Of a stretch of DNA of 64,000 nt, positions 39,396-64,000 are shown piece by piece; the stretch's first letter is position 1; each line of letters begins with the position of its first letter. The position numbers were made by a program, and so were the translations under genes. The stretch spans positions 124,001 to 188,000 of the forward strand of contig OOHK01000001.1 in NCBI GenBank assembly GCA_900315845.1, in the 5' to 3' direction. This stretch comes from Candidatus Avelusimicrobium luingense (GTDB lineage: Bacteria > Elusimicrobiota > Elusimicrobia > Elusimicrobiales > Elusimicrobiaceae). The notes under the pieces were generated by a model, which saw only the letters and a list, made by a program, of their open reading frames with translations, made no database searches and was not told the DNA's origin.

Positions 39396-39422
39396 CCACC
39401 CCCGGGTTTAACCCGGGGGTGG
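39396..39422 (-). terminator. terminator after the 1257-aa protein gene
   Basis: A perfect 12-bp GC-rich stem (39396-39407 with 39411-39422) lies 22 bp past the stop. On the minus strand it is followed by a T/A-rich run. Confidence 0.75.
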
Positions 39423-39444: not shown

Positions 39445-42400
39445 CTAATGTCTACTGGAACTTGCCGAACCTGGCCCGTTTGGAGCAATGTTCGGGGTGA
39501 CATTACCAGTAGTGGCTACCGCTTGATCCGCAGCCGGATTACCTTTGTATTTACTTATAAGTCTCGGATCGGCTTTAGGCATCACATTATCACCGTGATC
39601 GCACAAGCGGGTAATATATTCCAACACCTTGGCATGCGTCACCGTTTCTCCGACTGCATACTTACACGGCTCGTAATTTGTTAAGTCGTCATAAATACGC
39701 TGGAATTCCAGACGGTTTTTGTTGTCGCTTTCTGTCAATTGAGTTTTACTGGTTGCTAACAATTTTTCACGCTCCAACTCATTAAGCGGCAAACCGTGCC
39801 ACGGACTAGAAGGATCGTCAATTTGCTGCACATAGTAAGAACGATTTCCTACTTCCGTATAACCGCCCCACCAATACGGTGTTCTAATACTGAAACGCAG
39901 ATCCCAAATACGAGTTCCGCTCTTGTCATAGGTTTTTTGGGTCGGGCGCGACGCAGCATCATACGTAATGAATGCCATAAACGCACCGAACAAGTTATCA
40001 AACCCTTTCTCTCCATTAGCCGGAGCCTTAGCGTAACCACCAATGGTTTTACCTAATAAGCAGACCGTATTTTTCGGTACTGTACCGTTATTAGGATCCA
40101 TCAAGATAGCATCTACCAAGTTAGGTACAGTCAAACCGACGTCATTATAGGATAAAGCAATTCCATTCGGTCTGTTTTCTCTATCAAACTTTTCCTTGGC
40201 TGCTTTAAAATACGCTATTGTTTCACTATCTAATTTCAACAAAGGCGTACCGTCGGTAATTTTGCAATTATCCCACTTTTTGTTAGACGCCACACGATTC
40301 GGGTCTTCGGTGTCGGGACGCTCATTGGGATCCAACGGACGATTCGACAACGCCTTAAACGAGTTAATAAAGTAGGCCGATTTCGTTACCGGTGGGTTGC
40401 CCTTCGGATTCGGATTATCGTCCGGATTCGAATCATCGTCCGGATTCGGTTCCTGACAATTCGGATCCACCTTATAGGGTGCAGACCACTTGCCTCTTTC
40501 GCATTTTTTGGCCCATTCACAGACCTGGTCACCTTGTTTTGGCAATTTTACGATATCCCCGTCCGTGCAATCGTTTGTACCGGGGTTTTTCGTAACAACT
40601 TCGGCATCGCCATAGTAACAAGTGGCTTCACTGACCACGTTACCGGGTAAACTTTGACCGGAATATCCTACAAAATTACCATCTTTATCCGTTTTAACAA
40701 GTTTGCCGACGTTACAACCGCCTTTGCTTACGCCGTTACCACTAAAGAGCAAATCACCGCATTGGCGTACTTGCCAAGAAACGATGACCCGATCGTATCC
40801 TTGCGCGTGCAACTTTTCAACGGTATGTCTAGCCGCCACAGTTGCCGGATTATCTTTAGAGAACTCTTGGGTACCTAACGGGTACCATTGTGTCTTTTCG
40901 CTCGTGATGGTAGACTCTGTCTCATTGCCGGGGGCATTGTTTTGCCCTTGAATAGTATAAGATACCACGAAACGATCTTTCATTTGGTCATAGGCATGTT
41001 GGTCCGTCATATCGCCATATGACTTTAAGTAAGCGAGAGGACGACCCAGCCCGTCTTGGGAACCTTCATCCGTCTTTCCTACTAAGTCACAACTAATACG
41101 CGCTAACGGATAAGGACAGCGACCTCCGGTTACCCAATGTTTACCCGCTTTGCCACCGGATAATTCACGAGCTCTCTCCGGCGTATTCGCGGCAGCATCA
41201 CGCGACACGACAATTCCGCCGTTACGCAATTTTTCCATAAAATCAACATAGAGCATTCCTTCATCTGTGGCAGGATTGAGTTGCGGTGCATCGTCATCAC
41301 CCTGGCCGGAAGTCCCTTTTTGTTGATGTTGATCTCTACTAATTTGCGCTAAACGGGTTTGAATATTAGTAATCATTTGACGACATTGTTGTCGTTCTGT
41401 TTCCGTAGTAGCATGTATCAATTTATTTTCCCACATGCTCAAATCACTACGTAATTGTTTTTCCTCTTGCGTAGCACTACTATCGCCAGAAGATTTTTTA
41501 GATGGCGCAGAGGCGTCTTTGATTTTGCTTTGATAAATCGCCGCGCTTTCAATAAACAACGGAATGCCTTTGATATTTACATCACTGGCTTTCGCGTTAT
41601 AAAGCGGCGTTTCACGCAAATACAGAATCGTCCACAAGGCAGCCTGTTCTGTAGGTTCGGTTGTGCCGTAATACTTATCTACTTTATTATGCGGAATACC
41701 GACCACATATACCCACGTCGTCCATTTATCTTCTTTACCTTCGGTACTTGTCAATTGCGGGCGATACAAGCCATCCATCTTGAACGATTCACAAGAAGTA
41801 GCCGCATCCAAATCGCCTTTTTCCGCAGTAAACATATTGCGTAATTTTTGCGACAACCACGCACCGTTTCCACCTAAACAAGAGAAACGTTGACCAAAGA
41901 ATCCAAGACGGACATCACTGGCATTGCCTTTTGGTCCTTGCCAACCTCCGGCACATACCTCCGGGTGGCTAGCAGCAAATCCTTTACAAGCATCTTCTGA
42001 GAAAGGAATAGAATCGGAACCGATAAAACCAGCCCATCTCGCTTCTTTTTGTCCGCAGCAAGTAGCTTCCTTAATTGTTGCCCCGGCACCACTTCCTAAG
42101 AAGGCATCAACATCTCCACCGGAATCACCGGTCAACAGACAGAAAGCAAGACCTTTACCAACCGTCAGCAAGATTTCATCTAACGTGTCAATATACTTCC
42201 ACATACGGTTGAAATGTCTTTCCCATTGCATTTGGGAACGGGTTTTCATCAAGTCCCACCACCACGGTTTTTCACCGCTGTAGTTGAACTCACGATGTAA
42301 GTTACCGTTGCCGCCGCCCGGGCCGCCGAAATCGCCACCCATAATACCACCGATTTGACCGGGTTCGGGTTGTCTCATTTGAGCGTCCATAAGGGCTTGC

Positions 42401-43218
42401 ATGGCATTACCTTTAGACATGGCATCTTTGGAGCGTTGCGCTTCTTTGGCCCATTGAGTACCACCAAAGTATGAGCGCGACGGTTTCCCCGCCGCTTGCA
42501 ACGGTTGTAAAGATACCGGTTTAGGGCTGTTTTGCGGGCCGGCATTGCGAACTTTATTCGCCGCATTTTTCATATTGCCGCCGTATCTTTCGCCCAGTCT
42601 GCCCCCGTTACCACGAGCCATACCGGCTGTACCTAATTTATTGATTTTGGTAGCCGCACGTTTAAAAGCAGCACGCGTAGCGGCTGGGGCTTTCTTACGA
42701 AGTTTGTAAATGTTCTTGATGTTGGTTTCTTCGTCCATATCATTACGGGCATATGAAGAATTAGCCGACGAATCAGACAGACCGCTACGATAAATTTCAT
42801 CTAACGAATCCGTCCCTTCTTCTTCGTTGCTGCGGCGTTTACCAAACCCCACGATTAAATCCATAGAATCGCGGCCGGACAATTGTGCAATTTGACCTTC
42901 CGGATCCGTTCCTGTAAAATCAAAACCGGAGCGATCGGGGTTCAAGATGGCATCATCGTAAGACGGAGTAACCATAGTCGGTTCGTCTTCCACTTGTCCG
43001 CTGTACTTATACAAAAACGGCAGTAATAACAACGCCACTAACGCTGCAATAAAGAACGGCGCATCACGTTTGGTGCGCTCAAAGAGCGTTTGGTGGGGCT
43101 TGCCATCGCTACCGATTTTGGAGGTAATACGATTACCGAAAGATTTAGAAGCAGCTTGTTTGCTCTGCTTAATCTTATCGCTAAAGGTGAAACTCTCCTT
43201 CTTTTTTTCCTCTGGCAT
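39445..43218 (-). CDS. giant single-span membrane protein of the Tad-associated locus (1257 aa)
   Basis: I recognise no family. A 50-residue Lys-rich cytoplasmic tail is followed by one helix at about residues 54-70 (FFIAALVALLLLPFLY). A Gly/Asn/Arg-rich segment (residues 130-340) and a large ectodomain of about 900 residues with some 20 cysteines follow. A coiled-coil-like patch near residue 600 (EEKQLRSDLSMWENKL, QQCRQMITNIQTRLAQ) and an Asp/Asn/Pro repeat near residue 925 interrupt it. An AGGAGG site precedes the ATG. It has its own promoter at 43395-43422 and a 170-nt leader. It is the last gene of the secretion locus and most likely an extracytoplasmic structural subunit. Confidence 0.75.
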   Translation of the reverse strand: MPEEKKKESFTFSDKIKQSKQAASKSFGNRITSKIGSDGKPHQTLFERTKRDAPFFIAALVALLLLPFLYKYSGQVEDEPTMVTPSYDDAILNPDRSGFDFTGTDPEGQIAQLSGRDSMDLIVGFGKRRSNEEEGTDSLDEIYRSGLSDSSANSSYARNDMDEETNIKNIYKLRKKAPAATRAAFKRAATKINKLGTAGMARGNGGRLGERYGGNMKNAANKVRNAGPQNSPKPVSLQPLQAAGKPSRSYFGGTQWAKEAQRSKDAMSKGNAMQALMDAQMRQPEPGQIGGIMGGDFGGPGGGNGNLHREFNYSGEKPWWWDLMKTRSQMQWERHFNRMWKYIDTLDEILLTVGKGLAFCLLTGDSGGDVDAFLGSGAGATIKEATCCGQKEARWAGFIGSDSIPFSEDACKGFAASHPEVCAGGWQGPKGNASDVRLGFFGQRFSCLGGNGAWLSQKLRNMFTAEKGDLDAATSCESFKMDGLYRPQLTSTEGKEDKWTTWVYVVGIPHNKVDKYYGTTEPTEQAALWTILYLRETPLYNAKASDVNIKGIPLFIESAAIYQSKIKDASAPSKKSSGDSSATQEEKQLRSDLSMWENKLIHATTETERQQCRQMITNIQTRLAQISRDQHQQKGTSGQGDDDAPQLNPATDEGMLYVDFMEKLRNGGIVVSRDAAANTPERARELSGGKAGKHWVTGGRCPYPLARISCDLVGKTDEGSQDGLGRPLAYLKSYGDMTDQHAYDQMKDRFVVSYTIQGQNNAPGNETESTITSEKTQWYPLGTQEFSKDNPATVAARHTVEKLHAQGYDRVIVSWQVRQCGDLLFSGNGVSKGGCNVGKLVKTDKDGNFVGYSGQSLPGNVVSEATCYYGDAEVVTKNPGTNDCTDGDIVKLPKQGDQVCEWAKKCERGKWSAPYKVDPNCQEPNPDDDSNPDDNPNPKGNPPVTKSAYFINSFKALSNRPLDPNERPDTEDPNRVASNKKWDNCKITDGTPLLKLDSETIAYFKAAKEKFDRENRPNGIALSYNDVGLTVPNLVDAILMDPNNGTVPKNTVCLLGKTIGGYAKAPANGEKGFDNLFGAFMAFITYDAASRPTQKTYDKSGTRIWDLRFSIRTPYWWGGYTEVGNRSYYVQQIDDPSSPWHGLPLNELEREKLLATSKTQLTESDNKNRLEFQRIYDDLTNYEPCKYAVGETVTHAKVLEYITRLCDHGDNVMPKADPRLISKYKGNPAADQAVATTGNVTPNIAPNGPGSASSSRH
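40403..40448 (-). repeat. short tandem repeat inside the 1257-aa protein gene
   Basis: A degenerate unit around ATCGTCCGGATTCG recurs three times, encoding a NPDDDSNPDDNPNP linker in the ectodomain. It is a candidate for length variation between strains. Confidence 0.7.
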
Positions 43219-43394
43219 AAGTGCCTCCTAGTAAATTAAAAACTGCGTGTTTAGGGGTTTCTCCCCGTGGAAAACGGTTTTTTCAACTTCATCCGCTTCC
43301 CTGTTTTTACGTCCACTACCATAATAAAAAGTTCGCTGTTCAGAGATGGCTACCCACTCTGTAACAACTTACCCTTTTGATACTTCTTACTTTT

Positions 43395-43422
43395 ATTATA
43401 CAAATATTTTTCATTTTTTCAA
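43395..43422 (-). promoter_or_regulatory. strong sigma70-type promoter for the 1257-aa protein gene
   Basis: On the minus strand TTGAAA (43422-43417), a 16-bp spacer and a perfect TATAAT (43400-43395) are seen. The start site would be near 43388, leaving a leader of about 170 nt before the ATG at 43218. Confidence 0.75.
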
Positions 43423-43441: not shown

Positions 43442-44989
43442 TTACCACAACAAGGCGCCTCTGTTCACACGGATACTGCGTCCCCAATTTACACCGGGGA
43501 AATATTCGGTATTCAAACCACCCGTTTCGGTATATAACCGTCCTTTGATTTGGCCGTCATCCCCATCTAATTCGCTACTATTGTAGGTAGGGCAACCTTC
43601 TTCACATTCCGAATAATCATCCGTAGAAAACAACCCGTTTACCGCATTAATACAGGCCTGGGCCTCATCTCCTTCCAATCCATCACACTCGGCTAATTTG
43701 GCCTGACAATAGGCATCAAATACCGTATAATAAGCCGCTAATTGCTCAAAACGACATTGTCCGTTGTCCAACACCAGCGAAAGCGTACCGCATACCCGTT
43801 GGGCTGATTCATAGGCACTTTTCATTTGTTGGCAACCGTTTATAATACTTTGCAATTGGCTCATATATTCGCCGGGACGGGCACCGCAGGTTTGCGGAAA
43901 TTTTTCTGCCAAATGATTAATTCTATCGGCTAATGCACTCGTATTCATTTGCTGTCCGGCATGTGTCAGTGCTTGTTGGCAATTTTTATCTTGGTCTAAA
44001 TAATCTTGTACACCGGATATATCGGCATTCATTTCGTCTGCTTTAATTGCTACCCCGCCAAAGCCCGAAGCGGTAAATACCGTACGAGGCAATTCCGCCC
44101 CGTCAAAACTGGCAGATGCTAAAGTTTTTTTAAGTAATAATTGCGGAGTGCGCCGGGCCGCACGCCCCATCATCCATGCCCAATACATATCACGTTGGGC
44201 ACGCGAATCGCCTACGCGGTTTATTGCTCCAATTTGGGCTAGTGCCGTACTAGTGCGGTCATCTTTTTTAATAAATTCCGATAAATCCACGTCACTACGA
44301 ATAGCCCGATCCACCTCCCGATCAAACCAATCGGTTCCTTTAGATACCCCGGCAATCGGTAATTTCGTGGCTTTTTTTAACGTATTGACAGAATTAAACG
44401 CATCATTTTTATCCCGTCTGATACCGGATGCATCTTCTCCGAAGAACACATCACCATGCATGGCCGCCTCGTTGGCTTGAGTTTGTGCGGTAGGATTATC
44501 TTTTGTCAAACGAACGACAGTTTTATTCTGACCGGAACTATTACGACGTCCGTCTATTTCGGCCGCTAAATCTTCATACACACCTACTAAATGATCCCCT
44601 TTTTGTCCACGTTTGGCAAGGGCAGCATTAACGGCACGAATATCTATCAATTTATTCTTTGCGAGATCTTGCGTAGAATTAAAAGCCCCCCCGAGAGAAC
44701 CAAACACATTCACCTCATCGGGATCCGGTATTTCTCCGCGCATCATTTTGCTGTGTTCATTCCAAGAGAATAAGGCTTTTAGAAAAGAAATCCGATGGGC
44801 TTCATCCGGGCTGTATCCCATAGCGTACACTAAATCACGCAACAAGGGAATTTTTCCTACCGGGACAAGTCCCCCCACCCCCAATAAAAGTAACAAAACA
44901 ACCAACACGCTCCATAATTTTTTGGAGCGCAACCACGCACGCGTTTCTTGCGTTTGCGAAGATGTTGGAGTTGGAGAGGATGTATTCAT
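43442..44989 (-). CDS. membrane-anchored Cys-rich protein of the Tad-associated locus (515 aa)
   Basis: The N-terminal cytoplasmic tail is rich in Ser, Thr and Pro. One transmembrane helix lies at about residues 25-43 (LWSVLVVLLLLLGVGGLVP), and the remainder is extracytoplasmic. A segment LPRTVFTASGFGGVAIKADEMN resembles the FLAS-x-SGG module of the 510- and 526-aa neighbours. The C-terminal 170 residues contain ten cysteines, suggesting disulphide-stabilised helices. No known family was recognised. It is probably a structural part of the Tad-type apparatus. Only about 55 bp separate it from the 510-aa gene, so it is likely in that operon. Confidence 0.75.
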   Translation of the reverse strand: MNTSSPTPTSSQTQETRAWLRSKKLWSVLVVLLLLLGVGGLVPVGKIPLLRDLVYAMGYSPDEAHRISFLKALFSWNEHSKMMRGEIPDPDEVNVFGSLGGAFNSTQDLAKNKLIDIRAVNAALAKRGQKGDHLVGVYEDLAAEIDGRRNSSGQNKTVVRLTKDNPTAQTQANEAAMHGDVFFGEDASGIRRDKNDAFNSVNTLKKATKLPIAGVSKGTDWFDREVDRAIRSDVDLSEFIKKDDRTSTALAQIGAINRVGDSRAQRDMYWAWMMGRAARRTPQLLLKKTLASASFDGAELPRTVFTASGFGGVAIKADEMNADISGVQDYLDQDKNCQQALTHAGQQMNTSALADRINHLAEKFPQTCGARPGEYMSQLQSIINGCQQMKSAYESAQRVCGTLSLVLDNGQCRFEQLAAYYTVFDAYCQAKLAECDGLEGDEAQACINAVNGLFSTDDYSECEEGCPTYNSSELDGDDGQIKGRLYTETGGLNTEYFPGVNWGRSIRVNRGALLW

Positions 44990-45043: not shown

Positions 45044-46576
45044 TTATTTTCCGTTATTATTAGAATTATTCTGATTGCTTGTATCGGTTGTAGAGGAATT
45101 GGATTTAACAACCATCTTAAGAGCATTGGCGCCCATATCAATTCCTTTTCCTGCCACCGTTTTAAGCGCGCCACCGATATTTTCTTTAATAAAGGCTTGG
45201 ATGCTTTCCGGTTTTAACATGGCAAATGCAATGCCGGCAGCGGTAAGTCCGCTCAGGATAGAACCCACCCATACAGACCAAGATGAATCGTCCGGAAAGT
45301 TATTATGGAATCTCACGGCTTTTGTCATCATAGCACTTGCAAACCATACCATTACACCGGCCACAAGCCCGGAACCAATCCATTTAACATACGGGTTCGG
45401 TATTTTTTGTAAATAAGCAATGGCTATCACACCCGCAATTGCCACTCCTAAGGTCAGGAGCATCCATTTGATAACTTCAGACATGGCATCATTCCGTGTC
45501 TTTAAGGAATTATTAATATCCGAAAGTCCTCTCTTTAGACCTCTAAGTTGGGGTGCTTCTGTAGATTTGAAATCAGCAGAACCGACTCTTTCGGCATCAG
45601 CCATTCCGCTATCCATGCTGATTCCACCCGAATTTTGTGCCGAGGCTAAAAAGGCGCGCCCGGCTTCGGTATTAGAGGCATTGCCTTGTCCGGCCAAACG
45701 GGCGGCATCCGCAGAACGCTTGGAGATATCGGCTAATTCGCCTTTGACGGCACCGGACTGGCTGCCCTTCGCTACGGTTGCGCGTGTAGTCCCCGCCATA
45801 AAGTGTGACGAACTGCGTCCGTCTGCACCGCTTAATGAAACAGGATTGGTACCGCTGGGCATAGCCCCGGAGAAATTATAAGAAGAACCACTTGATTTTC
45901 CGCCGGACGAGCGCGAAGATCCGTTACGGGAACCGCCGGACGAACTACCGGAAAAATTGCCGTAAGATGCATTAATACCACTACCGGAGGCACGCGTCAT
46001 AGAGGCTGTTCCTAACGAGGCAATTTGAGTTGGCTCGGAAGAATGGCTTCCACTTCCTCTTGACGTAGAATAATTTGCATCACCCGATCCGTTTGCACGC
46101 GGAGAATATGAATGGCTGCTGACACTGTTTTGTCCACCTTCTGTTGAATTTCCTGACGAATATCCGGACAAATCCACATCAGGGCTTTTACCTAACCCTT
46201 CTGTTTCACCCAAAGAGGACCCTCTTCCCACAAAAGAAGAAGCGACCTTAGCATCCATATTATCCGCCGCCGACAAACCGAAATCACCCACTTCGGATGA
46301 ATTTCTTTGCGAGGTTTGTATGGTGCCTGTCTCATCGGACACATTGATAGAAGTAAGCCCTGTACCGTTGTCCGTATAGTGCATACTTCCGTAATCAAAA
46401 TTATTGGAAACAGATGATAAAGACCGTACCGCCATGTTTTGGGAATCACCGGGCTCTACCAAGTTTTGCATTACGGTTGCCCCGATAATACCCACACCGG
46501 CAGATATCAAGAGCGCTTTTTGCGTACTCATGGCCAATTTTCCGGCCTTGTTTTTAAGCAGATTAAACCAATTCAT
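45044..46576 (-). CDS. Ser/Gly-rich membrane protein of the Tad-associated locus, paralogue A (510 aa)
   Basis: The N-terminus MNWFNLLKNKAGKLAMS plus a helix (residues 20-38) aligns with the start of the 526-aa protein. The middle 250 residues are Ser/Gly/Asn-rich, with TEGLGKSPDVDLSG and TRASGSGINASYGNF. A module KRSADAARLAG...TEAGRAFLASAQNSGG follows near residue 300. Three C-terminal helices end it (MLLTLGVAIAGVIAIAYL, WIGSGLVAGVMVWFASAMM, WVGSILSGLTAAGIAFAML). It starts 2 bp after the 94-aa gene. The architecture is shared with paralogue B. Function is unknown; an inner-membrane subunit with a flexible exposed loop is likely. Confidence 0.75.
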   Translation of the reverse strand: MNWFNLLKNKAGKLAMSTQKALLISAGVGIIGATVMQNLVEPGDSQNMAVRSLSSVSNNFDYGSMHYTDNGTGLTSINVSDETGTIQTSQRNSSEVGDFGLSAADNMDAKVASSFVGRGSSLGETEGLGKSPDVDLSGYSSGNSTEGGQNSVSSHSYSPRANGSGDANYSTSRGSGSHSSEPTQIASLGTASMTRASGSGINASYGNFSGSSSGGSRNGSSRSSGGKSSGSSYNFSGAMPSGTNPVSLSGADGRSSSHFMAGTTRATVAKGSQSGAVKGELADISKRSADAARLAGQGNASNTEAGRAFLASAQNSGGISMDSGMADAERVGSADFKSTEAPQLRGLKRGLSDINNSLKTRNDAMSEVIKWMLLTLGVAIAGVIAIAYLQKIPNPYVKWIGSGLVAGVMVWFASAMMTKAVRFHNNFPDDSSWSVWVGSILSGLTAAGIAFAMLKPESIQAFIKENIGGALKTVAGKGIDMGANALKMVVKSNSSTTDTSNQNNSNNNGK

Positions 46577-46578
46577 AG

Positions 46579-46863
46579 TTACTCTCCTTGTCTTCTAAAA
46601 CTGTCCACTGCATTTTGGACGCCTTCCCGCGCCGATTGTTCTTCCAATATCTGCCGTTCATAAGCGGCTTGACGACGGATACGTTCTTGTTGCAAATAAA
46701 TCTGCTGCTCTCGCTCTTGCCTTAATTCCCGCAAGATACGATATTCGTTATATATTGCAAAAATACTACCGAAGAACCATCCCAACACCAGTATAATAAT
46801 TATTATACGCGGGATAACATTGTATTTATTCCAAGGTAAAATATTCCATTTTCCAATACGCAT
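46579..46863 (-). CDS. small single-span membrane protein with coiled coil (94 aa)
   Basis: One helix (VIPRIIIIILVLGWFFGSIFAIY, about residues 16-38) is followed by a highly charged heptad-like stretch (EYRILRELRQEREQQIYLQQ, then ERIRRQAAYERQI), a probable coiled coil of about 45 residues. It resembles the bitopic septum/secretion organisers in outline only; there is no family match. It sits between the two paralogous Ser/Gly-rich genes with very short gaps, so it is expected to act with them. Confidence 0.75.
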   Translation of the reverse strand: MRIGKWNILPWNKYNVIPRIIIIILVLGWFFGSIFAIYNEYRILRELRQEREQQIYLQQERIRRQAAYERQILEEQSAREGVQNAVDSFRRQGE

Positions 46864-46872
46864 ATCTTACCT

Positions 46873-48453
46873 CTACGGGAAAAACTTTTGCATAAAGATA
46901 TCAAACATACCGCTGGAACTTCCACCGGCAGCACCTTCCGTCCCTGCCGCTTCAGCAAGTCCGGCCGTTTGGGCACCGTTTTCAACCCCAGCGAAAATTT
47001 TAGTCAGCGCATCAATGGCTTTTTGTACACCCTCACTTACGTTATACAGTAAGGAGAGTATCAAGGCCGCTCCACCGATACAACCTGTTAACCCGGCCAG
47101 CGTACTTAACCAACCGCCGCCATGATTGTTGGCATATTGCGCAGACTCATAAATCAGTTTAGCACACAACGCTAAACCGGCCGCCACGGCGATTCCTACC
47201 GCTACCCAAAGCACAATATTCCACGGGTACGGAGCCGCTTTGGCAGCATTGGACAACCAGAAAATAACTTTACATAAAGCATACACACCCGCCACGGTAC
47301 CAAGCCATAACAGAATTAAATTATTCATATCAGTATTTAATTCATCTAACGGATCTATGATCGTCGGATCGGCGACGAAGTCCCGAGCCGCTTGTATTTG
47401 AGCGTTGGTGCTTGAGGAGAAATCTTTAGATCCTTTCCCTTCGCTTGTATTAATATGTTCGGCCCCAATCATTAAACCGCCCGAAATTTGCGTGCTGGCC
47501 AAAAAGACGTTCCCTTCCGTATTGTGACGGTTTTTATTTGCGGCCACGTCAATAGAACGCTTGGTAAAAAATTCCAAATCATCTTTACCTTTTTGAGCAT
47601 TACGGCCACGCATAACAGTAGCATCTCTGCTTTTACCTAATCCTTCATTTTTACCAAAAGAGGCCTTGGCTTTGATTTGGGTGCCTTCCATCGCCCCATT
47701 CATCATATTTTGAGCGTGGGATAATATGCCTTGCACGTCAGAAGCATTCATATTTGCTTGGCCATTTTTACCGCTATTTTGCAAGACGAAAGAGGAACCG
47801 CCACCACCGGAACCGCCGCCGGAACTACTACCCGACCGCCAACCGGGGGTAGCACTGGCTAATGTAGGCGCCTCTTTTTTGGTTGCGCCTTTGCCTTCTT
47901 TATCTTTGGCTTGTGCTTGGGCTTGTTGTTGGGCATTGGCGATTGCACCTTTAATATTGGCCATCTGTGACGTCATGGCACCCATAGAACCGCCTGTCAA
48001 AAGTTGTTGGTCAACCGCATTAGCCCCCATACCTAATCCTTCGGTTTGGCCTAATTGGTAAGCCGAGCCATCAATAGGCGCAGCCATAGCCATTTCGGCT
48101 TCATTTTCGGCCATTTCTTGAGCGGCACGTTCGGCTAATTCTTGATTTTCTAACAATTTAAGCGTTTTAGCAGAGACGCGCATAGAAGAACCCGGTTCAC
48201 CCGTAGAGCGATCCAATTTTCCCCGATATGCATTTCCGGCATAACTACCGGTATTTGCACCGGACACATAGACGACTTCCCCCGGGTTATATTGTCCCGC
48301 CGGGTTAAACGCCGTATTATCATCGGAAGAAGAGCCTAAAAACTGATAGGCGGCTACTGCTCCCGCACCGACAACGGCCGTTAACCCTACTGCCTGTAAG
48401 GCAGACAGGGCTATTTTACCGCTACGGCTTGCTAATTTTTTTAAGATATTCAT
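46873..48453 (-). CDS. Ser/Gly-rich membrane protein of the Tad-associated locus, paralogue B (526 aa)
   Basis: It has the same layout as the 510-aa protein: MNILKKLASRSGKIALSALQ with a helix (18-37), then a long Gly/Ser/Ala/Gln-rich region (SGGGSGGGGSS; AQQQAQAQAKDKEGKG). KNEGLGKSRDA and FTKRSIDVAANKN...TEGNVFLASTQISGG follow, and three C-terminal helices (residues about 375-485). A tail ends GMFDIFMQKFFP. The shared landmarks argue for duplication. An AGGAGG site precedes the ATG. The absence of cysteines in the exposed part contrasts with the 515- and 1257-aa proteins. Confidence 0.75.
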   Translation of the reverse strand: MNILKKLASRSGKIALSALQAVGLTAVVGAGAVAAYQFLGSSSDDNTAFNPAGQYNPGEVVYVSGANTGSYAGNAYRGKLDRSTGEPGSSMRVSAKTLKLLENQELAERAAQEMAENEAEMAMAAPIDGSAYQLGQTEGLGMGANAVDQQLLTGGSMGAMTSQMANIKGAIANAQQQAQAQAKDKEGKGATKKEAPTLASATPGWRSGSSSGGGSGGGGSSFVLQNSGKNGQANMNASDVQGILSHAQNMMNGAMEGTQIKAKASFGKNEGLGKSRDATVMRGRNAQKGKDDLEFFTKRSIDVAANKNRHNTEGNVFLASTQISGGLMIGAEHINTSEGKGSKDFSSSTNAQIQAARDFVADPTIIDPLDELNTDMNNLILLWLGTVAGVYALCKVIFWLSNAAKAAPYPWNIVLWVAVGIAVAAGLALCAKLIYESAQYANNHGGGWLSTLAGLTGCIGGAALILSLLYNVSEGVQKAIDALTKIFAGVENGAQTAGLAEAAGTEGAAGGSSSGMFDIFMQKFFP

Positions 48454-48522: not shown

Positions 48523-49719
48523 TTAAGCCAAATTATTCATGTCATCTCCATGCAAATCATCGGGGATCGTATCATCATCTCTACTATCTCCGCCAGGAGG
48601 GGTTGGATCATCCGGGACGGGATCAGAAGGAGGCGTGGTATGACTCGGAGTAGTGGACGGAGTAGTCGTTGGGGTGGATGACTTATTACCACCGCCGCTT
48701 GATTTATCACCGCCACTACTTGACTTATCACTGGCGCCGGAACTACTGGGCGTGACACCGAAAGCCTTATCTATGGCTCTGTTAGCCGTATTGGTTAAGA
48801 TGGTCTTACCGACATCAATCGCCGCTAACAATAATTCTTCTCTCATTTTTTCCGGCCATGTTTTTTCATTGCGTTTATCCTCTTCCTCTTTTTCTTTTTG
48901 GGCTTTTTGAGTGGCATCTTTTAAATCTTGTTCTAAATTACTCAAATCAGGAGTAACAGGGGCTTCGGTATCAATAGCAAGGCCTTGGGCTTTACTTAAA
49001 TCAATTGCCCCATCTTCAAAGGCTTCACTGCCTGCGATATCGCCCCCCATCAGTGCCCGTTTGGTATTTCCACCTTTACCGTCTTTCAGCCCGGCAGCGG
49101 CCTGACTTCCGCGCGCGAACTGGTATAACGCTTTGCGTGCATCTTGGTTCTTAAATTGAACGGGGCGTTCCGAGCCTTTATCTTGGCTTCTATACGGCGA
49201 AAAATCCCCACGAGGGGAACCCCAAGAACCATTTATTCCACCGCCACTGGCCCGTCCAACACTGCTTGAACTCAATTTATTTACTTGAGTGGGAGTGGCC
49301 GGGGAAGATTTGCCGTAACTGCGGGGACGATAACTATGCGAAGTAGGAGCAGGAGACGAACTTTCCCGAAATGATTGGGCCGTTTCTTCCTGTTCAATTT
49401 CTTCCTCGGCATCTTGGGCTTGGCGTTCTTCTTTTTGTTGGGAAGAATATAATAAAGTAGAATTGTTTCCTTGCATATCGGGATATTTAGAGGCCAGTAA
49501 ATATTGTTCGGCTTCGTCGTTCACAAAGGGCATTTGGGCCAAATCGTATCCACGAGATTCTAACCCGCTAAAAGATTGGTCTTGCGCATCACCCATCAGC
49601 GAAGACAACGTAAAAAAAGCCACAATCAATACGACGGCTACGGCGCCCCACGTATAGGCTTGCTTATGGCTCATAGAATTGGCTTTTTGAAATACATTGC
49701 CCGGTTTTAACTTAAACAT
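48523..49719 (-). CDS. Ser/Pro-rich single-span protein of the Tad-associated locus (398 aa)
   Basis: The short basic N-terminus and one helix (residues 23-41, WGAVAVVLIVAFFTLSSLM) precede a low-complexity ectodomain. It has an acidic Gln/Glu stretch near residue 95, then GRASGGGINGSWGSPRG, matching TRASGSGINASYG of paralogue A. A KALYQFARGSQAAAG segment, a coiled-coil-like KDATQKAQKEKEEEDKRNEK and a Ser/Gly/Thr/Pro tail ending in Asp-rich DDDTIPDDLHGDD follow. No family was recognised. It is the first gene after the strong promoter at 49816-49844 and so leads a separate structural-gene operon. Confidence 0.72.
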   Translation of the reverse strand: MFKLKPGNVFQKANSMSHKQAYTWGAVAVVLIVAFFTLSSLMGDAQDQSFSGLESRGYDLAQMPFVNDEAEQYLLASKYPDMQGNNSTLLYSSQQKEERQAQDAEEEIEQEETAQSFRESSSPAPTSHSYRPRSYGKSSPATPTQVNKLSSSSVGRASGGGINGSWGSPRGDFSPYRSQDKGSERPVQFKNQDARKALYQFARGSQAAAGLKDGKGGNTKRALMGGDIAGSEAFEDGAIDLSKAQGLAIDTEAPVTPDLSNLEQDLKDATQKAQKEKEEEDKRNEKTWPEKMREELLLAAIDVGKTILTNTANRAIDKAFGVTPSSSGASDKSSSGGDKSSGGGNKSSTPTTTPSTTPSHTTPPSDPVPDDPTPPGGDSRDDDTIPDDLHGDDMNNLA

Positions 49720-49815
49720 AATTTATCCCATTACACAATAATAAAAATTACTCTTGCTGACCCGCCTTTCACAAGGCACTCACGCACAGAGTTAAACACA
49801 ATACTTCTTATCTAA

Positions 49816-49844
49816 AGTATAAAGAGATAATAGGGTTTTGTCAA
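49816..49844 (-). promoter_or_regulatory. near-consensus sigma70 promoter for the structural-gene block
   Basis: On the minus strand TTGACA (49844-49839), a 17-bp spacer and TATACT (49821-49816) are seen. The start site would be near 49809, about 90 nt before the ATG at 49719. It is the best promoter in the right half of the window. Confidence 0.85.
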
Positions 49845-49914
49845 GACCCTTTACAGAGCATATTGAGAAGAATAACAACAACGCAGAAACACTTGGAAAA
49901 GAGGCCCAAACGTT

Positions 49915-50457
49915 TTATTTTCCTTCCGGACGCATATACGGGGCAGGCCGTTCATTATGCCCGACATATTTTTTCACTTCAATCTGCCCACCTGTTTCAC
50001 ACAAGAAAGCATATCCTTTCAAACACATATTGTCTGTTTCACATACGCGATCTTTATTATAATTGCACAGAAAACGAACATGTGGCGGTTTCGTATTAGC
50101 CGTAAGCGTAATTTGTGTCCATGTACCGGTACGTATGATCTCCATCTTAAGTTTATTTAAACTTAAAAATTTACGCATACCCGGATTATCAAACCCTAAA
50201 TAATTTTCTATCTTTTTTTGGATATCTTTTTCTAAAAACCGTTTATCCCACGTACGTTGGTAATAATCGGTTTCATGGGATTGCAGTTGAAAACGACGCG
50301 CCGCATAAAAACCCGCTACTTCCATTTTTTGACTCAAAACTAAAAGACCGAAAATTTTGATAATAAATAAAATAAATATAATAAAAAACGGAAACAGCAA
50401 CACCACTTCCGTCGTGGCTTGCCCTTTACGTGAACGTAATGAAGATATTAACCTCAT
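49915..50457 (-). CDS. TadE-like pseudopilin (180 aa)
   Basis: The N-terminus MRLISSLRSRKGQATTEVVLLFPFFIIFILFIIKIFG has the TadE pattern: a basic stretch, G|QATTE with the conserved Glu five residues in, and a hydrophobic helix. The cleavage site resembles that of the Flp pilin encoded at 51614-51790. The rest is a small extracytoplasmic domain with a C-terminal cysteine group. It follows the 397-frame TadG-like gene by 2 bp. Confidence 0.82.
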   Translation of the reverse strand: MRLISSLRSRKGQATTEVVLLFPFFIIFILFIIKIFGLLVLSQKMEVAGFYAARRFQLQSHETDYYQRTWDKRFLEKDIQKKIENYLGFDNPGMRKFLSLNKLKMEIIRTGTWTQITLTANTKPPHVRFLCNYNKDRVCETDNMCLKGYAFLCETGGQIEVKKYVGHNERPAPYMRPEGK

Positions 50458-50459: not shown

Positions 50460-51608
50460 TTACGGCTCCAACCGCACATTATATTTGGGTAACGGATTAG
50501 GCCACACGCAGTTATTATTCCCGCGCGGACAAGTTAATTTAACCCGATTTCTAACAAACGGCTTATATTTTTGTTCTAAATTGATATTAAAAATATTACG
50601 CGGCAAACTAAATGATTGTTTAAGTAAAACACCCCGTCCCAACGTTTTAAGTTTACTACGGCTTGCTTGGTCTAAATAAGCAAATTGAAACAAGGGTTCT
50701 TTCAAATCCGCCTCTGCATGGAAAACAATACCCTGCGCACCGTTATGCCATCCGTACTTGACACTATATTGGGAAATATAAAACATTACATCTTTTATAG
50801 TCATGGGTTTTGTTTGAATACCTAAATACTTGCGAAGTTGCGCAGCACTCTGCCGCCCACATTCACTAGGCTTACAAGAGGACACATTAAAAGAATATCC
50901 TTCCCGAAATGTAACTTCATTCTTACTCAGTTCTTTATAAGCATAATCTTGTGATTTATAAATAGAACCTACACGCACATACGTCTCCAAATAAAAGGAC
51001 ATGGCTGGCAAAGCAGGAGAGTTATCCATATCGTTTTCATCAGCATAAAAGAGATAATCTTCTGCTAATTTTTTGCTAATCAGCGGCAGCGGTTCGTCCA
51101 AAGGTTTTGGATTTTCCTTTTCCCACGCCGCACGGGAAAATTTAGGGTCGGTGTGCTCCCCTACTTTTTCAAAATACTTTAATCCCCAGTTTGTAGATTC
51201 GGCTGCCGGTGGCTTGTTGGTCCCGGCCTTGTCATCATAATTAGGGCCGATAGCAGGCACCCCCCCACCTTTATAAAACAAATCAAATACCGTAATATCG
51301 GGCAAAACACTTCTTTTGGAATCTTTCGGCCTAATTTTATGGGCATCATCTGCCATATATTGCATAACACGGTAAGGTAACGGCCCGTTGACCATAGCCA
51401 CGGAATTTAAGTAAGTGCTGACGGAAGATACCTGCGAATACGCCGCATTATCCAACGCAAACTGGTTACGTATTTTGGCCATGGACACTTTTGCCGTTTC
51501 AAACAATAAATATACTACTAAAGCAAAAATAGGGGCCAAAAGCACTGCAGGTAACAATACCTGTGCCTTACGCTCCCGCCATTTCCGATTCAGATAGTAT
51601 ATATTCAT
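50460..51608 (-). CDS. TadG/TadE-like pilus assembly protein (382 aa)
   Basis: The start at 51608 (MNIYYLNRKWRERKAQVLLPAV) gives the usual basic tail, KAQVLLPAVLLAPIFALVVYLLF hydrophobic helix and conserved Glu in LFETAKVSM, typical of Tad-locus TadE/F/G proteins. The 330-residue ectodomain has few cysteines and ends in a basic NNNCVWPNPLPKYNVRLEP. No von Willebrand domain of the long TadG type is obvious. An upstream in-frame GTG is possible, but it would overlap the Flp gene. It lies 5 bp downstream of the Flp pilin stop. Confidence 0.75.
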   Translation of the reverse strand: MNIYYLNRKWRERKAQVLLPAVLLAPIFALVVYLLFETAKVSMAKIRNQFALDNAAYSQVSSVSTYLNSVAMVNGPLPYRVMQYMADDAHKIRPKDSKRSVLPDITVFDLFYKGGGVPAIGPNYDDKAGTNKPPAAESTNWGLKYFEKVGEHTDPKFSRAAWEKENPKPLDEPLPLISKKLAEDYLFYADENDMDNSPALPAMSFYLETYVRVGSIYKSQDYAYKELSKNEVTFREGYSFNVSSCKPSECGRQSAAQLRKYLGIQTKPMTIKDVMFYISQYSVKYGWHNGAQGIVFHAEADLKEPLFQFAYLDQASRSKLKTLGRGVLLKQSFSLPRNIFNINLEQKYKPFVRNRVKLTCPRGNNNCVWPNPLPKYNVRLEP

Positions 51609-51613
51609 AGTTT

Positions 51614-51790
51614 TTATGATGTCAGCAATTTGCCCACAAAAATAAATAACCACCGTACCACATCGGTATGAAAAGCCGTAAAGAACGCCGAGATGACCAC
51701 TACAATACTGGCCAGCATCAACACGTACTCTATCGTGGCTTGCCCTTTTTTAGCGGCCGAGCCCTTTTCACGTTGTAAGATACGAAACAA
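51614..51790 (-). CDS. Flp-type pilin (58 aa)
   Basis: The frame runs from the TTG at 51790 to the TAA at 51614-51616. GGAG lies 6 bp before the TTG, inside the last codons of the response-regulator gene; the two genes are one base apart. The product MFRILQREKGSAAKKG|QATIEYVLMLASIVVVISAFF is a class III (Flp) prepilin: Gly before the site, Glu at +5 of the mature chain, and a long hydrophobic helix. The head is very short (HTDVVRWLFIFVGKLLTS). It is the main pilus subunit candidate of the Tad system. Confidence 0.85.
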   Translation of the reverse strand: MFRILQREKGSAAKKGQATIEYVLMLASIVVVISAFFTAFHTDVVRWLFIFVGKLLTS

Positions 51791-55575: not shown

Positions 55576-56520
55576 TTAGCAACTGCCGGACGGAGCGGCC
55601 GGTACACCGGAGGCTGCATTCGGGTTGAAAAATTCAAAACCCGGGATTTGCGAAGCCGTATCTAATCCTACTTGAACTTTACCTTCCCAAAGCAACGTCG
55701 GAGACGCACTGACGCCAAATTCTTTAGCATATTTGGCTTCTTCTTTAAGAAGTTCCAAGCCTTCGCTGTCAAACTTTTTCATGATTTTTTTGACATTGAT
55801 ACCCGCTTCTTCCATGGCTTTGTCCCAACGGCTGGAGCGGTAATCTTTATTACGGATTTCCAAATATTTCCAGAATTGTTCCGGATAGTATTTGGCAATT
55901 AACAATTGGCGAACGTTTTCTTCCCATTCACCCGAACCATGCAAACTGTCAAATCCGCGGTCAGCGGTATAGTTTACAATATAGCGCACACGGACAGTTT
56001 TGTCTTTGGGGAACGTCCCGTTCTTTTTGGCTTGGATAATAAAATCTTCAGCACGCACACCATAAGGGCATTGGGACATTACAAACAATTCCATAACGCC
56101 CGGTTTGGCCGGTTTATTATTATATACCCCTTGACGGGTTTGATGGGCTAAAACAATAAAATCATCTGTTTCTTGAGCCGCACCATATTGAAGCGGTTGC
56201 TCCATTTTGGCACGAATGGCTTTCGTTTTTTTAATTAAATAAAGCGGTAAGAAACTATAATCTAATCCCTTAAGTTTCGGGTCGTTTGTCACTTGAGAAA
56301 CGGAAATACGCTTGACTTCCGGTTCTGCTTCTAAGAATTGCCCTAACCCTTGCGTAAGCAATTCGTCTTCTTTCCCGGCAGCATAATCGTCAGATTCTAC
56401 AACGATCATTTCCGCTTTCGGTTTAGCCTGCGTTTTAGCAGGAGTATTTTTTTGAGCGGTAGCCGCAACAGCTACGCCCGCAATTACTAATGCGGCTAGT
56501 AAAACATATATTTTTTTCAT
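55576..56520 (-). CDS. exported thioredoxin-fold protein with CPYG motif (314 aa)
   Basis: The signal peptide MKKIYVLLAALVIAGVAVAA directs it to the periplasm. Residues 20-135 are low in recognisable motifs. From residue 142 a thioredoxin-like fold begins (GVMELFVMSQCPYGVRAEDF), with CPYG at 151-154 in the active-site position: a single cysteine, not CxxC. The cis-Pro loop is likely SASPTLLWEG. The last residues are GSC. It resembles GILT/DsbA-like proteins in layout. The neighbouring structural proteins are cysteine-rich, so a thiol or isomerase role is plausible. Confidence 0.75.
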   Translation of the reverse strand: MKKIYVLLAALVIAGVAVAATAQKNTPAKTQAKPKAEMIVVESDDYAAGKEDELLTQGLGQFLEAEPEVKRISVSQVTNDPKLKGLDYSFLPLYLIKKTKAIRAKMEQPLQYGAAQETDDFIVLAHQTRQGVYNNKPAKPGVMELFVMSQCPYGVRAEDFIIQAKKNGTFPKDKTVRVRYIVNYTADRGFDSLHGSGEWEENVRQLLIAKYYPEQFWKYLEIRNKDYRSSRWDKAMEEAGINVKKIMKKFDSEGLELLKEEAKYAKEFGVSASPTLLWEGKVQVGLDTASQIPGFEFFNPNAASGVPAAPSGSC

Positions 56521-59924: not shown

Positions 59925-60815
59925 CTAAAATCCTAATCCGCCGCTGACAAGGCCCATAATCATCGGCGCTAAAATTAAAATAAAAATCGTCGGGAAGATA
60001 AAAAAGAACAGCGGGAACAACATCTTGGTAGATGCTTGCGCGGCTAACTTTTCCGCCCGGCTTAAGCGGCGTGCGCGTAAGTCGGTAGAGAAGTTACGCA
60101 ATAAATCTACTAAACTTGTACCCAACTCGTCCGATTGGATAATTAACCCCACCAAGGAACGTACTTCCTGCACCCCGGTACGCGCAGCAAAGTGTTCCAA
60201 CGCTTCACGGCGGGAATAACCGAGTTTAATTTCGTTGATGGTTTTTTCCAATTCTTCTTCCAAAATCGTTTTTTCTTTGGCTACTTTGATAATACGCTCA
60301 AAAGCAGTCAAATAATCCAAACCGGATTCAATAATAAGTGCTGCCAAATCTACCGTCGTAGAGAAGTTGCCTAAAATTTCGGCTTGGCGTTTCTCAATTT
60401 TACTTTTAATAAATACGTCCGGCAAATAGAAACAAAGCGGTACTAAAATAACCGGCCAAAAGGCTTGAAATAATAACATCAATGCCGCCGGCACCAGTAA
60501 CGCATACAAAATTTTACTATACAAAATATCTACCGGTTGCGGTTTATCCGGGCCGCCTAATTGCATGTGCATTTCTTCCAAGCTGTCTTCTATGTTGAAA
60601 TTGCGCAAGCAAAATACGGCGATTCTATCCCAGAATTTATCTTCCGGCTGTAAGCGGGCAAAACTGGATGTGGACTTAAAGCGTTTGACCGCAATATCCA
60701 CCACTTCGTCTTTTTTCTCACGAGGCGCCAGCAAGCCAAAAACCGTCATAAAGGTGGCGAATATACCGATTGCTAAAAGCAGTTTTAGCCCTACTGTAAA
60801 AAGAAATGTATTCAT
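59925..60815 (-). CDS. tadC: TadC-type inner-membrane platform protein (T2SS-F family)
   Basis: The 296-aa protein has an N-terminal helix (FTVGLKLLLAIGIFATFMTVFG), the T2SSF cytoplasmic domain with EKRQAEILGNFSTTVDLAALIIESGLDYLTAFERI, and terminal helices (MLFPLFFFIFPTIFILILAPMIMG). Together with TadB it forms the membrane platform that the TadA ATPase rotates. It follows tadB by 2 bp. Confidence 0.9.
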   Translation of the reverse strand: MNTFLFTVGLKLLLAIGIFATFMTVFGLLAPREKKDEVVDIAVKRFKSTSSFARLQPEDKFWDRIAVFCLRNFNIEDSLEEMHMQLGGPDKPQPVDILYSKILYALLVPAALMLLFQAFWPVILVPLCFYLPDVFIKSKIEKRQAEILGNFSTTVDLAALIIESGLDYLTAFERIIKVAKEKTILEEELEKTINEIKLGYSRREALEHFAARTGVQEVRSLVGLIIQSDELGTSLVDLLRNFSTDLRARRLSRAEKLAAQASTKMLFPLFFFIFPTIFILILAPMIMGLVSGGLGF

Positions 60816-60817
60816 AA

Positions 60818-62470
60818 TTACACCCGTACCTCGCCCATTTTCTTAAGCACTTGCATACCAATGCCAATCCAGATGATACAGAATAAAAATACGAAAATTC
60901 CAACCGGACTTGCATAGAATGAAATCATCTGTGTCGGGTTGAAAATGAACATTACCAGCATCATCACAAACGGCATTACACTGACCACAATAGATTGGAT
61001 TTTCTGTTGGGCCGTCATGGCCTGTAATTTTTCTTCCAATTTACTTTCTTCGCGAATATTTTCAACCAAGCGAGAGAAAATAACGGTTAAGTTTCCCCCC
61101 ACTTGCCGTTGAATAATAATGGCTTTAACAATATAAGAAAGCATACGGCTTTCTACCCGTTCAGTTAATCCGTCTAATGCTTTTTCAAAAGGAGTACCTA
61201 ATTGGTAGTTTTTAACTACTAATCCGAATTCGTCGGCAATCGGCGGTTGCATATCGCGGCTGACCAGTTCAAACCCTTGCACAATATCCATACCCGAACG
61301 AAGCGAGTTAGACAGCAAAATTAAAGAATCCATCAGTTGGGCATTGATTTTGCGCCCGCGGCTCTTTTTCAAAGCGTCCAATACTGCCATCGGCATACGG
61401 ATACTGACAACCCCACCCATAAATACCACGAGTAAAAAGACAAATACACCCAAAAATCCGCCCACGATTAAGCCCATAAACAACCCACCGATAGCAAATA
61501 AGGCAATCGTACCAAAAACAATATATTTAATATCAATAGTTACAAATTGGCGGTTAAAATCTTCGGCCCAGACCGTACTTTTCTGCTTATATTCTGCCCA
61601 AACGGCTAAAATGTTATCGCGTTTATTTTCCAGTAATAAAAATACCGCAAACCCGGCTAACACCGCCCCAAACAATGTCATCAAGAGTCTGGCCGAACGT
61701 TCCCTGGCATTAGAGTTGTAAATTTTAGGATCCGGCGGATAGGTAGGAATAGCCGTATTAAAGAATTGACTAAATAAATGGTTGGCTAATGTGACTACGG
61801 CCATGACCGATTTACGATATTTGTCTTCACGTTGCGAAATCGGGCTGGAAAACGATTCAATTGTACTGAAAAATTCGCTATTGATTAACTCAAAAGTGGC
61901 TAACATGGAACGAGCCCGTCCGTCCATGCTGTCTTTCATAACAAGCAGTTGCGTACCGCGCAGTAAATCTTTATTTAAAAAGTCTAATGCACGCACTAAA
62001 TTCAGGCGGTTCCCCACATACCCGCGGGAAAGTTGATCTAACACGACCGGTTGGCTGGGATCTAATGATTTATCGGCCCGGTCTAAAAATAAATAGACGT
62101 TAGAAAATGCTTGCCGCCACAAATCCACTTCACTAGACGTTCCTTCCCCGGGTGTATAGACTACTTTGTTGGAATCCATACGAGTTAATTCTTCTTCAAA
62201 CCATTTGGGAATTTTGCATTGTCCGTTTCTGCAACCGGCAGGCAACGGCCCGCATTTTGCAATGGGCGGCATGGGATATACTTTTTTATCATTGGCCAAA
62301 TGCACATCAAAAATTTCAGCCAAAATACTCATTTTTTCCCGAGCGCATTGAATGCGATCGCGATCTTTAGTAGACAAGGCTTTACCATACCCCTGTCCGG
62401 CAGTTCCTACAAGAGTAACTGCCACGAGTACACATAAGATAAAAAAGTGAAATTTCTTTATCATAATCAT
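60818..62470 (-). CDS. tadB: TadB-type platform protein with an N-terminal extracytoplasmic domain (550 aa)
   Basis: The start at 62470 shares one base with the tadA stop (TAATG). Typical TadB proteins are about 300 aa. Here the T2SSF region (GRKINAQLMDSLILLSNSLRSGMDIVQGFELVSRD and the ENIREESKLEEKLQAMTAQ stretch) begins only near residue 375. The first 260 residues start with a signal-like [25 protein letters not shown] and contain CAREKM and CGPLPAGCRNGQC, so they are likely outside the cytoplasm. A helix at about residues 265-290 then connects to the platform. This is a fusion of a novel ectodomain to TadB. Confidence 0.9.
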   Translation of the reverse strand: MIMIKKFHFFILCVLVAVTLVGTAGQGYGKALSTKDRDRIQCAREKMSILAEIFDVHLANDKKVYPMPPIAKCGPLPAGCRNGQCKIPKWFEEELTRMDSNKVVYTPGEGTSSEVDLWRQAFSNVYLFLDRADKSLDPSQPVVLDQLSRGYVGNRLNLVRALDFLNKDLLRGTQLLVMKDSMDGRARSMLATFELINSEFFSTIESFSSPISQREDKYRKSVMAVVTLANHLFSQFFNTAIPTYPPDPKIYNSNARERSARLLMTLFGAVLAGFAVFLLLENKRDNILAVWAEYKQKSTVWAEDFNRQFVTIDIKYIVFGTIALFAIGGLFMGLIVGGFLGVFVFLLVVFMGGVVSIRMPMAVLDALKKSRGRKINAQLMDSLILLSNSLRSGMDIVQGFELVSRDMQPPIADEFGLVVKNYQLGTPFEKALDGLTERVESRMLSYIVKAIIIQRQVGGNLTVIFSRLVENIREESKLEEKLQAMTAQQKIQSIVVSVMPFVMMLVMFIFNPTQMISFYASPVGIFVFLFCIIWIGIGMQVLKKMGEVRV

Positions 62471-64000
62471 TAAGCCTGTGGAGCAGCCGGCGGAGCAGGC
62501 GGCACGGCGGGCGGTTCAGGAGCAGTCTCCTTACTTGCTTTTGCCTGTTGTAATTGTTGCACCGCATGTAAATCAGGCTCGCCGTTTTCATCTAACGGAA
62601 CGGCGCCATGCTTAAATACGGCTTCGTCTATCGGTTGTCCTTTGGCTGCAAATTCTTCATAGAAAGTCGGGAGGTTACCCGTCGGGGCAAATACCCCTTG
62701 TACTTTCCCGTTTTCATCTACCCCGGTCTGCACATAGCGGAACAAATCGGTAGATTGGATTTGTCCGTCTTTTTGTCCATGCATCTCGGTAATGTAGGTG
62801 ACTTTACGCGAACCATCCGAGAAACGCGACAATTGAACGATCATATTGACCGCCGATGAAATCATTTCGCGGATAGCAAAAATCGGCAAATCGGCCCCTG
62901 TCTGCATGCACATCGCTTCCAAACGGGATAATCCGTCGCGCGGCGTGTTGGCGTGAATAGTCGTAAGTGACCCTTCGTGACCGGTGTTCATGGCTTGTAA
63001 CATGTCTAACGCTTCGCCACCGCGGCACTCCCCGACTACAATACGGTCAGGACGCATACGCAAACAGTTTTTAACTAAATCTTGAATCGTTACCGCCCCT
63101 TTTCCTTCTACGTTTGGCGGACGGCTTTCCAGCGATACCCAGTGCGGTTGTTGCAACCGAAGTTCCGCGGTATCTTCTACCGTAATGATACGTTCATCAT
63201 CGGCAATATAACCGGAAATAGCATTTAAGAAAGTGGTTTTACCGGTACCGGTACCACCGCAAACAATAATGTTTTTGCGGATTTTAACGCATTTCTTAAT
63301 AAATTCCATACATTCCGGACTAATCGTACCGAAACGGTAGTAATCTTCCGGGCCGAACGGTTTAGTGGAGAAACGACGAATAGTAAGCGTCGGGCCGGAA
63401 ACAGCGAGCGGCGCAATAATGGCGTTAACACGGGAGCCGTCTTTCAAACGGGCGTCCACGAGCGGCACAGATTCGTCAATACGGCGACCTAAAGGAGCCA
63501 CGATACGTTTAATAACCTGTACCACCTGTTCGTTATTTCTAAATTTGTATTTGGTTAAGGTCAACTTACCTTTTTGTTCGATAAAAATCTTATCAAAGGC
63601 GTTGACCATGATTTCGGTAACAGCCGGGTCGCGCATTAAGACTTCCAGCGGCCCTAACCCTAAAATTTCATCTAGCAATTCCGAAGAAAAACGTTCCCGC
63701 TGTTCGCGCGAAAACTGTAAGTTAGGTTGTTTTTGCAAGATATCATCCACAATGGCGGCCACCCGTTTACGGGTTTGCGCGCTGGCGGCACTTTCGTCGC
63801 TAATAGCGATATGTTCAATTTCCAAGGTGCGCACCACGTCTTTGTGAATTTTCTGTTTCAAATCGTCCCAAAATGACAGTTGAGTCTTAGCCCCGGGGTC
63901 ATCATCGGCAATATGGCTGACGGAAACAGTATCTTTGCCATCATTAAACAACACCGGCGACCAAATTTCTTTAGACGCTTGGGCAAATTCTTCGTCGCTA
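62470..64000 (-). CDS. tadA: TadA-type secretion ATPase, N-terminus beyond the right edge
   Basis: The frame is open to base 64000, so the start is outside the window. Internal TTG/GTG codons near 63954 are not convincing starts, because coding sequence continues beyond them ([13 protein letters not shown]). CpaF/TadA-type features are present: [23 protein letters not shown], Walker [10 protein letters not shown], the Asp box [27 protein letters not shown] (Walker B) and [15 protein letters not shown] (His box). The C-terminal 60 residues are an Ala/Pro/Gln-rich tail. It powers pilus assembly. The gene overlaps tadB by one base. Confidence 0.95.

What the first reader, a model, noticed from the sequence alone, without database searches (positions are those of the whole stretch)
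39445..43218. A 1257-aa Cys-rich single-span protein with its own promoter ends the locus
It has one transmembrane helix, an ectodomain of about 1100 residues with about 20 cysteines, a coiled-coil patch and an Asp/Asn/Pro repeat linker, and no recognisable domain. The promoter at 43395-43422 (TTGAAA, 16 bp, TATAAT) gives a 170-nt leader. A protein of this size in a secretion locus could be the tip, the adhesin or the main scaffold.
Basis: partly seen in the sequence, partly recalled or inferred. Interest (0 to 1): 0.6.

Follow-up and report, generated by a model that had tools for sequence, protein, structure and literature searches.

The report
Giant membrane anchor of Tad pilus
This is a very large, unannotated protein that gut Elusimicrobia make next to the genes of a hair-like surface pilus, and it most likely sits under the outer membrane as an anchor or bridge for that pilus machine rather than sticking out as an adhesin.

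Summary
Confirmed: a 1257-aa, single-span protein with 21 Cys, all in the ectodomain, and its own promoter. It is not a lone oddity. It belongs to an unnamed family found across the class Elusimicrobia (N-terminal profile: 156 of 294 phylum genomes). It usually closes a gene block next to a Tad-pilus locus. Its cytoplasmic tail, membrane helix and next 270 residues are the constant part: 57 of 68 invariant positions lie in residues 1-345; 8 of the other 11 are Cys. The family co-occurs with a Tad secretin of about 247 aa that lacks the usual periplasmic N-domain (148 of 156). An E. minutum-like member ends in an OmpA-like, peptidoglycan-binding-type segment. Best reading (0.5): an inner-membrane-anchored periplasmic bridge or scaffold of a lineage-specific Tad machine. 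A pilus-tip role is disfavoured because there is no prepilin site. The promoter is conserved in 17 of 23 in-genus loci and is followed by a conserved, covarying hairpin and T-tract without an Rfam match, found only at this gene. Structure prediction gave low confidence; a possible Ig-like domain is unproven.

The parts
39445..43218 (-). giant protein gene, 1257 aa
43066..43218 (-). cytoplasmic tail, residues 1-51 (mean conservation 0.81)
43009..43065 (-). single transmembrane helix, residues 52-70
   Evidence: residues 52-76 conserved 0.92
42184..42990 (-). constant linear periplasmic region, residues 77-345 (GRDS-DLI, PTxI motif, KPVSLQPL, KPWWWD)
42574..42663 (-). short motif (T-x-I-x-x-L...R-x-x-G-G-G) shared with p398 and p510, about residues 186-215
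   Evidence: hhalign
41509..42183 (-). Cys-rich region, residues 346-570; Cys 360, 387, 411, 447, 476 in 31 of 31
41269..41508 (-). poorly conserved helical (coiled-coil-like) insert, residues 571-650
40600..41106 (-). possible Ig-like beta-sandwich, residues 705-873 (low confidence)
40387..40452 (-). Asp/Asn/Pro linker, residues 923-944, not conserved
39448..40368 (-). C-terminal region, residues 951-1257; Cys 1053 and 1185 in 31 of 31
43395..43422 (-). promoter TTGAAA-16-TATAAT
43335..43368 (-). conserved 14-bp leader hairpin with covariation
43321..43330 (-). T-tract TTTTTATTAT after the hairpin
43224..43229 (-). AGGAGG ribosome-binding site
39396..39422 (-). intrinsic-terminator-like hairpin after the gene
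43442..44989 (-). p515, Cys-containing single-span partner, adjacent in relatives
45044..46576 (-). p510, N-terminal and C-terminal membrane helices; paralogue of p526
46579..46863 (-). 94-aa membrane ORF between p526 and p510
46873..48453 (-). p526, paralogue of p510
48523..49719 (-). p398, single-span, shares linear motif with giant
49915..50457 (-). p180, TadE-like minor pilin
   Evidence: (below Pfam cut-off)
50460..51653 (-). p397, large TadG-like protein, conserved to other families of the class
   Evidence: assignment inferred
59925..62470 (-). TadC and TadB platform proteins
62470..63954 (-). C-terminal part of the TadZ-CpaF fusion ATPase (continues past the window)

Best explanation
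The protein is an inner-membrane-anchored periplasmic bridge or scaffold of a Tad-pilus machine particular to the class Elusimicrobia. Shown: bitopic N-in topology by sequence, a constant tail/membrane helix/linear region, a variable disulfide-capable ectodomain, synteny with a Tad block, and co-inheritance with a Tad secretin that lacks its periplasmic N-domain. Inferred: the constant half docks on the inner-membrane Tad platform or on the block partners p398, p510, p526 and p515, and the ectodomain reaches the cell wall or the short secretin, replacing contacts that a secretin N-domain, CpaI or CpaD make elsewhere. In the genus it is made from its own promoter with a conserved leader hairpin, so its amount can be set apart from the rest of the locus (inferred).
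For: 57 of 68 strictly invariant positions lie in residues 1-345, and 8 of the other 11 are Cys. Block order p398-p526-p510-p515-giant in the genus; comparable blocks ending in the giant in other families. Tad genes: TadZ-CpaF, TadB, TadC, RcpC, secretin, TadE, Flp-type pilins (sub-threshold). Co-occurrence with the mini-secretin: 148 both, 8 giant only, 16 mini-secretin only, 122 neither, of 294. The mini-secretin aligns from residue 84 to RcpA residue 208; RcpA has an N-domain at 28-112 (PMC10499894, passages). OmpA-like C-terminus in the E. minutum-like member. In C. crescentus, CpaD (OmpA-like) and CpaI are proposed to link the Tad machine to peptidoglycan and between membranes (PMC13170226, passages).
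Against: In the E. minutum-like genome (L092), L093, L097 and L098 the giant lies away from Tad genes, although Tad genes are elsewhere in those genomes. 8 genomes have the giant but no mini-secretin hit and 16 the reverse. Co-occurrence is confounded by shared ancestry. The OmpA-like motif was found in 3 of 93 giants and not in the window protein. No contact with any Tad part was tested. Structure models are weak (mean pLDDT 52 and 63).
Confidence: 0.5

Rival explanations
1. It is a surface adhesin or receptor, displayed by the Tad system, whose variable Cys-rich ectodomain binds targets in the gut.
For: Ectodomain far more variable than the anchor; more Cys in the gut genera aligned (12-42 per protein) than in the members of other families and g14 that were read (2-15); weak Ig-like region.
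Against: No prepilin-type site before the membrane helix; the most conserved part is cytoplasmic/membrane; an OmpA-like wall-binding-type segment in one relative points to the periplasm.
Confidence: 0.2
2. It is a general envelope scaffold that only happens to neighbour Tad genes.
For: Unlinked to Tad in four of the loci examined (L092, L093, L097, L098); 8 genomes with giant and no mini-secretin hit.
Against: 148 of 156 giant-bearing genomes have the mini-secretin; blocks next to TadE/TadG relatives also in f7 and f8 (L139, L141).
Confidence: 0.2
3. It is a substrate or effector exported by the Tad-like machine.
For: Large size, variable C-terminus, position at the end of the locus.
Against: Class-wide, as a rule one match per genome, with a membrane helix invariant in the genus; no toxin or enzyme domain found.
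Confidence: 0.08

Closest known systems
Caulobacter Tad parts CpaI and CpaD (PMC13170226, passages read)
   Same: Proposed role: link inner- and outer-membrane parts and the cell wall; CpaD is predicted OmpA-like, as is the end of one relative of this protein.
   Different: CpaD has 225 aa and CpaI is called small; no membership was tested. This protein has 1257 aa and is anchored in the inner membrane.
Kil/TadE-F-G tip minor pilins (PMC12075869, abstract, section 16 and passages)
   Same: Encoded with a Tad locus; variable, disulfide-rich distal part.
   Different: Tip pilins have a leader and prepilin site; this protein has a 51-residue cytoplasmic tail and no such site.
MotB-type anchors (recalled, no call)
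   Same: One N-terminal membrane helix; in one relative an OmpA-like end.
   Different: The window protein has no detectable OmpA-like domain.

Membership tests
Tad pilus system (the locus) | CpaF ATPase, TadB/TadC platform, secretin, RcpC, TadE | tested here: met
Tad pilus system (the locus) | Flp-type pilin | tested here: inconclusive
   75- and 60-aa ORFs with G-x4-E-Y and hydrophobic helix; Pfam Flp hits below cut-off
Tad pilus system (the locus) | prepilin peptidase | not tested
   no search made
TadE/F/G (Kil tip) minor pilin | prepilin site followed by N-terminal hydrophobic helix | tested here: not met
   none before the helix; one loose pattern hit at residue 74 lies after it with no following helix
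MotB/OmpA-type wall anchor | C-terminal OmpA-like domain | tested here: not met
   window protein and 20 other members: no OmpA hit; E. minutum-like member weak hit
Ig-like fold ectodomain | clear structural match to Ig-like domains | tested here: inconclusive
   Z up to 6.2 (3.4 A, 101 aligned) for model residues 241-409; no Foldseek E under 0.001
CpaI / RcpA N-domain-like bridge | VirB9-like beta fold contacting the secretin | not tested
   no comparison made

The most novel reading that the evidence does not exclude
Elusimicrobia run a Tad pilus with a cut-down secretin whose missing periplasmic part is replaced by a lineage-specific complex of bitopic proteins capped by this giant; its anchor is fixed while its outer part is exchanged (disulfide-rich, OmpA-like or long helical), and in one genus its synthesis is gated by a new leader RNA hairpin.
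Probability: 0.27. Interest if true: 0.75.

Novelty: new variant of a known kind. Interest (0 to 1): 0.57.

Why it matters
How Tad machines connect their outer- and inner-membrane parts differs between species (PMC13170226, passages). A class-wide family of giant anchored proteins tied to a truncated secretin would be a distinct solution, and a test case for how a pilus machine works without a secretin N-domain. It would also give a first handle on surface appendages of the gut Elusimicrobia. The leader hairpin is a candidate new cis-regulatory RNA.

Tried and rejected
Pfam, NCBIfam, PHROGs and PDB sequence searches of the window protein gave nothing usable. Rfam gave no hit for the leader at E up to 5. 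Foldseek against PDB had no match at E 0.001 for either model; VIA-align best Z was 7.4 and 7.2, on the helical insert, below the level to trust. Structure of residues 1-309 was not predicted.

Paralogy of the whole block was considered: only p510/p526 are clear full-length paralogues (hhalign E 1.6e-47); giant with p398 reaches 65.6% probability and p510 with p398 93.8%, through one short motif for the most part; other pairs among the five are not supported. A toxin reading was dropped for lack of any toxin domain in the searches. The 297-nt gap before p510 proved to hold a small ORF, not a second leader. A genome-wide OmpA family search did not list the giants among the matches shown; its list was cut at about E 1e-7.

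Literature: library searches for Elusimicrobi + Tad pil, Elusimicrobi + type IV pil + secretion + gut, Elusimicrobi + Avelusimicrobium, Elusimicrobiota + tight adherence and OmpA-like + peptidoglycan + Tad pilus showed no description of this protein in their listings; PMC6668835 notes Tad systems in Elusimicrobia (passage). The E. minutum genome paper is not held and was not read.

Full report
The 1257-aa ORF at 39445-43218(-) is intact, has one hydrophobic span at residues 52-70 and 21 Cys, all at 360-1206. The tail carries 13 K/R against 6 D/E, so it should face the cytoplasm. The genome has 1.46 Mb and named relatives are Elusimicrobiaceae and Elusimicrobium records, several from rumen and gut.

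The family is large but unnamed. A plain protein search finds it in 36 of 61 near genomes and a profile in 83 of 149 of the order, three of them only with weak scores. A profile of the N-terminal 350 residues that includes distant members finds 156 of 294 genomes of the phylum; all listed matches are in the same class. A one-contig genome of 1,643,562 bases among them (L092) is probably E. minutum; that identification is from recall.

Across 31 genus members, mean conservation is 0.81 for the cytoplasmic tail, 0.92 for residues 52-76, 0.56 for 77-180, 0.70 for 181-345, then 0.39, 0.20, 0.33, 0.18 and 0.38 for the rest; 57 of 68 invariant positions lie in residues 1-345, and 8 of the other 11 are Cys. 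The coiled-coil patch and Asp/Asn/Pro linker are the two least conserved parts. Distant members share only the anchor and a RDPLSLILG-like stretch by hhalign, and more weakly further motifs.

The neighbourhood is a Tad-pilus locus: TadZ-CpaF fusion, TadB, TadC, RcpC, secretin and TadE, two Flp-like pilins below cut-off, p180 and p397. In the genus the order p398-p526-p510-p515-giant recurs. Similar blocks ending in the giant occur in other families (L089, L091, L139, L141, L144-L146). In L092, L093, L097 and L098 the giant stands alone, but Tad genes are found elsewhere in those genomes. A TPR protein and rsmA follow the giant in many relatives, so it does not strictly end the conserved neighbourhood.

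The Tad secretin here is only 247 aa. It matches P. aeruginosa RcpA from residue 84 against RcpA 208, and RcpA has an N-domain at residues 28-112 plus a linker (PMC10499894, passages), so that domain has no room here. The short form is class-wide: in the 294 genomes, 148 have giant and mini-secretin, 8 the giant only, 16 the mini-secretin only and 122 neither (Fisher test, which ignores shared ancestry). In a hand-picked set, 20 of 20 genomes with the giant had it and 1 of 4 without.

An E. minutum-like member ends in an OmpA-like segment (NCBIfam YiaD 1.8e-5; PDB OprF 1.4e-4; Pfam OmpA 0.0038, below cut-off). A motif scan finds such a segment in 3 of 93 giants and not in the window protein. 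This suggests the ectodomain is periplasmic in at least that member and that distal parts are exchanged.

The protein is not a pilin: no prepilin site precedes its helix, whereas p180, TadE162 and both Flp-like ORFs have one; p397 did not match the same pattern. Tad tips are built of such minor pilins (PMC12075869, passages). This lowers the tip reading.

Structure prediction did not settle the fold. Residues 310-1257 gave mean pLDDT 52 and 466-880 gave 63. The best consistent hint is an Ig-like sandwich at about residues 705-873 (Z up to 6.2), which is within the noise level the tool states.

The promoter is supported by conservation: 17 of 27 upstream regions, 17 of 23 within the genus, keep a promoter of at least 11 of 12 consensus bases, 16 of them TTGAAA-16-TATAAT and one TTGACA-16-TATACT, and the same 17 carry a hairpin 24-27 bases after it. 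The six in-genus loci without it include five with short gaps of 83-103 nt, where co-transcription with p515 is likely. The hairpin has 14 pairs, 98.5% of cells paired and 3 pairs with changes on both sides on 14 sequences, and folds at z -4.3. A model of it matches 38 of 149 order genomes, all in the genus; 37 of the 38 best matches lie just upstream of the giant and one on a contig without it; two further hits at E 0.016-0.019 are likely chance (positions compared). A T-rich tract follows after 3-5 bases. It may be an attenuator or an mRNA-protecting leader; nothing here decides. A different hairpin with the same TTTTTATTAT tail follows a conserved TTGACA-TATACT promoter before p398 in most of 12 aligned loci.

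Conclusion: an inner-membrane-anchored periplasmic bridge or scaffold of an Elusimicrobia-type Tad machine is the best-supported reading (0.5). Docking, span and function are inferred, not shown.

Noticed in passing
window 49720-49914: Before p398: conserved TTGACA-N17-TATACT promoter followed by a different hairpin with the same TTTTTATTAT tail as the giant's leader, in most of 12 aligned loci.
   Followed up: partly
window 46579-46863: 94-aa single-span ORF between p526 and p510, seen in most of the 14 aligned relatives as well.
   Followed up: partly
window 37640-39334: TPR protein with signal-like N-terminus, syntenic downstream of the giant in genus and in g15.
   Followed up: partly
window 55576-56520: DsbA-like protein (weak Pfam) with a single-Cys CPYG motif inside the Tad locus, conserved in relatives; may relate to the Cys-rich proteins.
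   Followed up: no
L045 8313-13697 and 7290-8273: 1794-aa FlgD-Ig-like protein with a CHU_C-type signal hit and a PorV/UPF0164-like protein just upstream of the Tad genes.
   Followed up: no
window 42574-42663, 48523-49719, 45044-46576: Short linear motif (PTxIxxL...RxSGGG) shared by giant, p398 and p510.
   Followed up: partly
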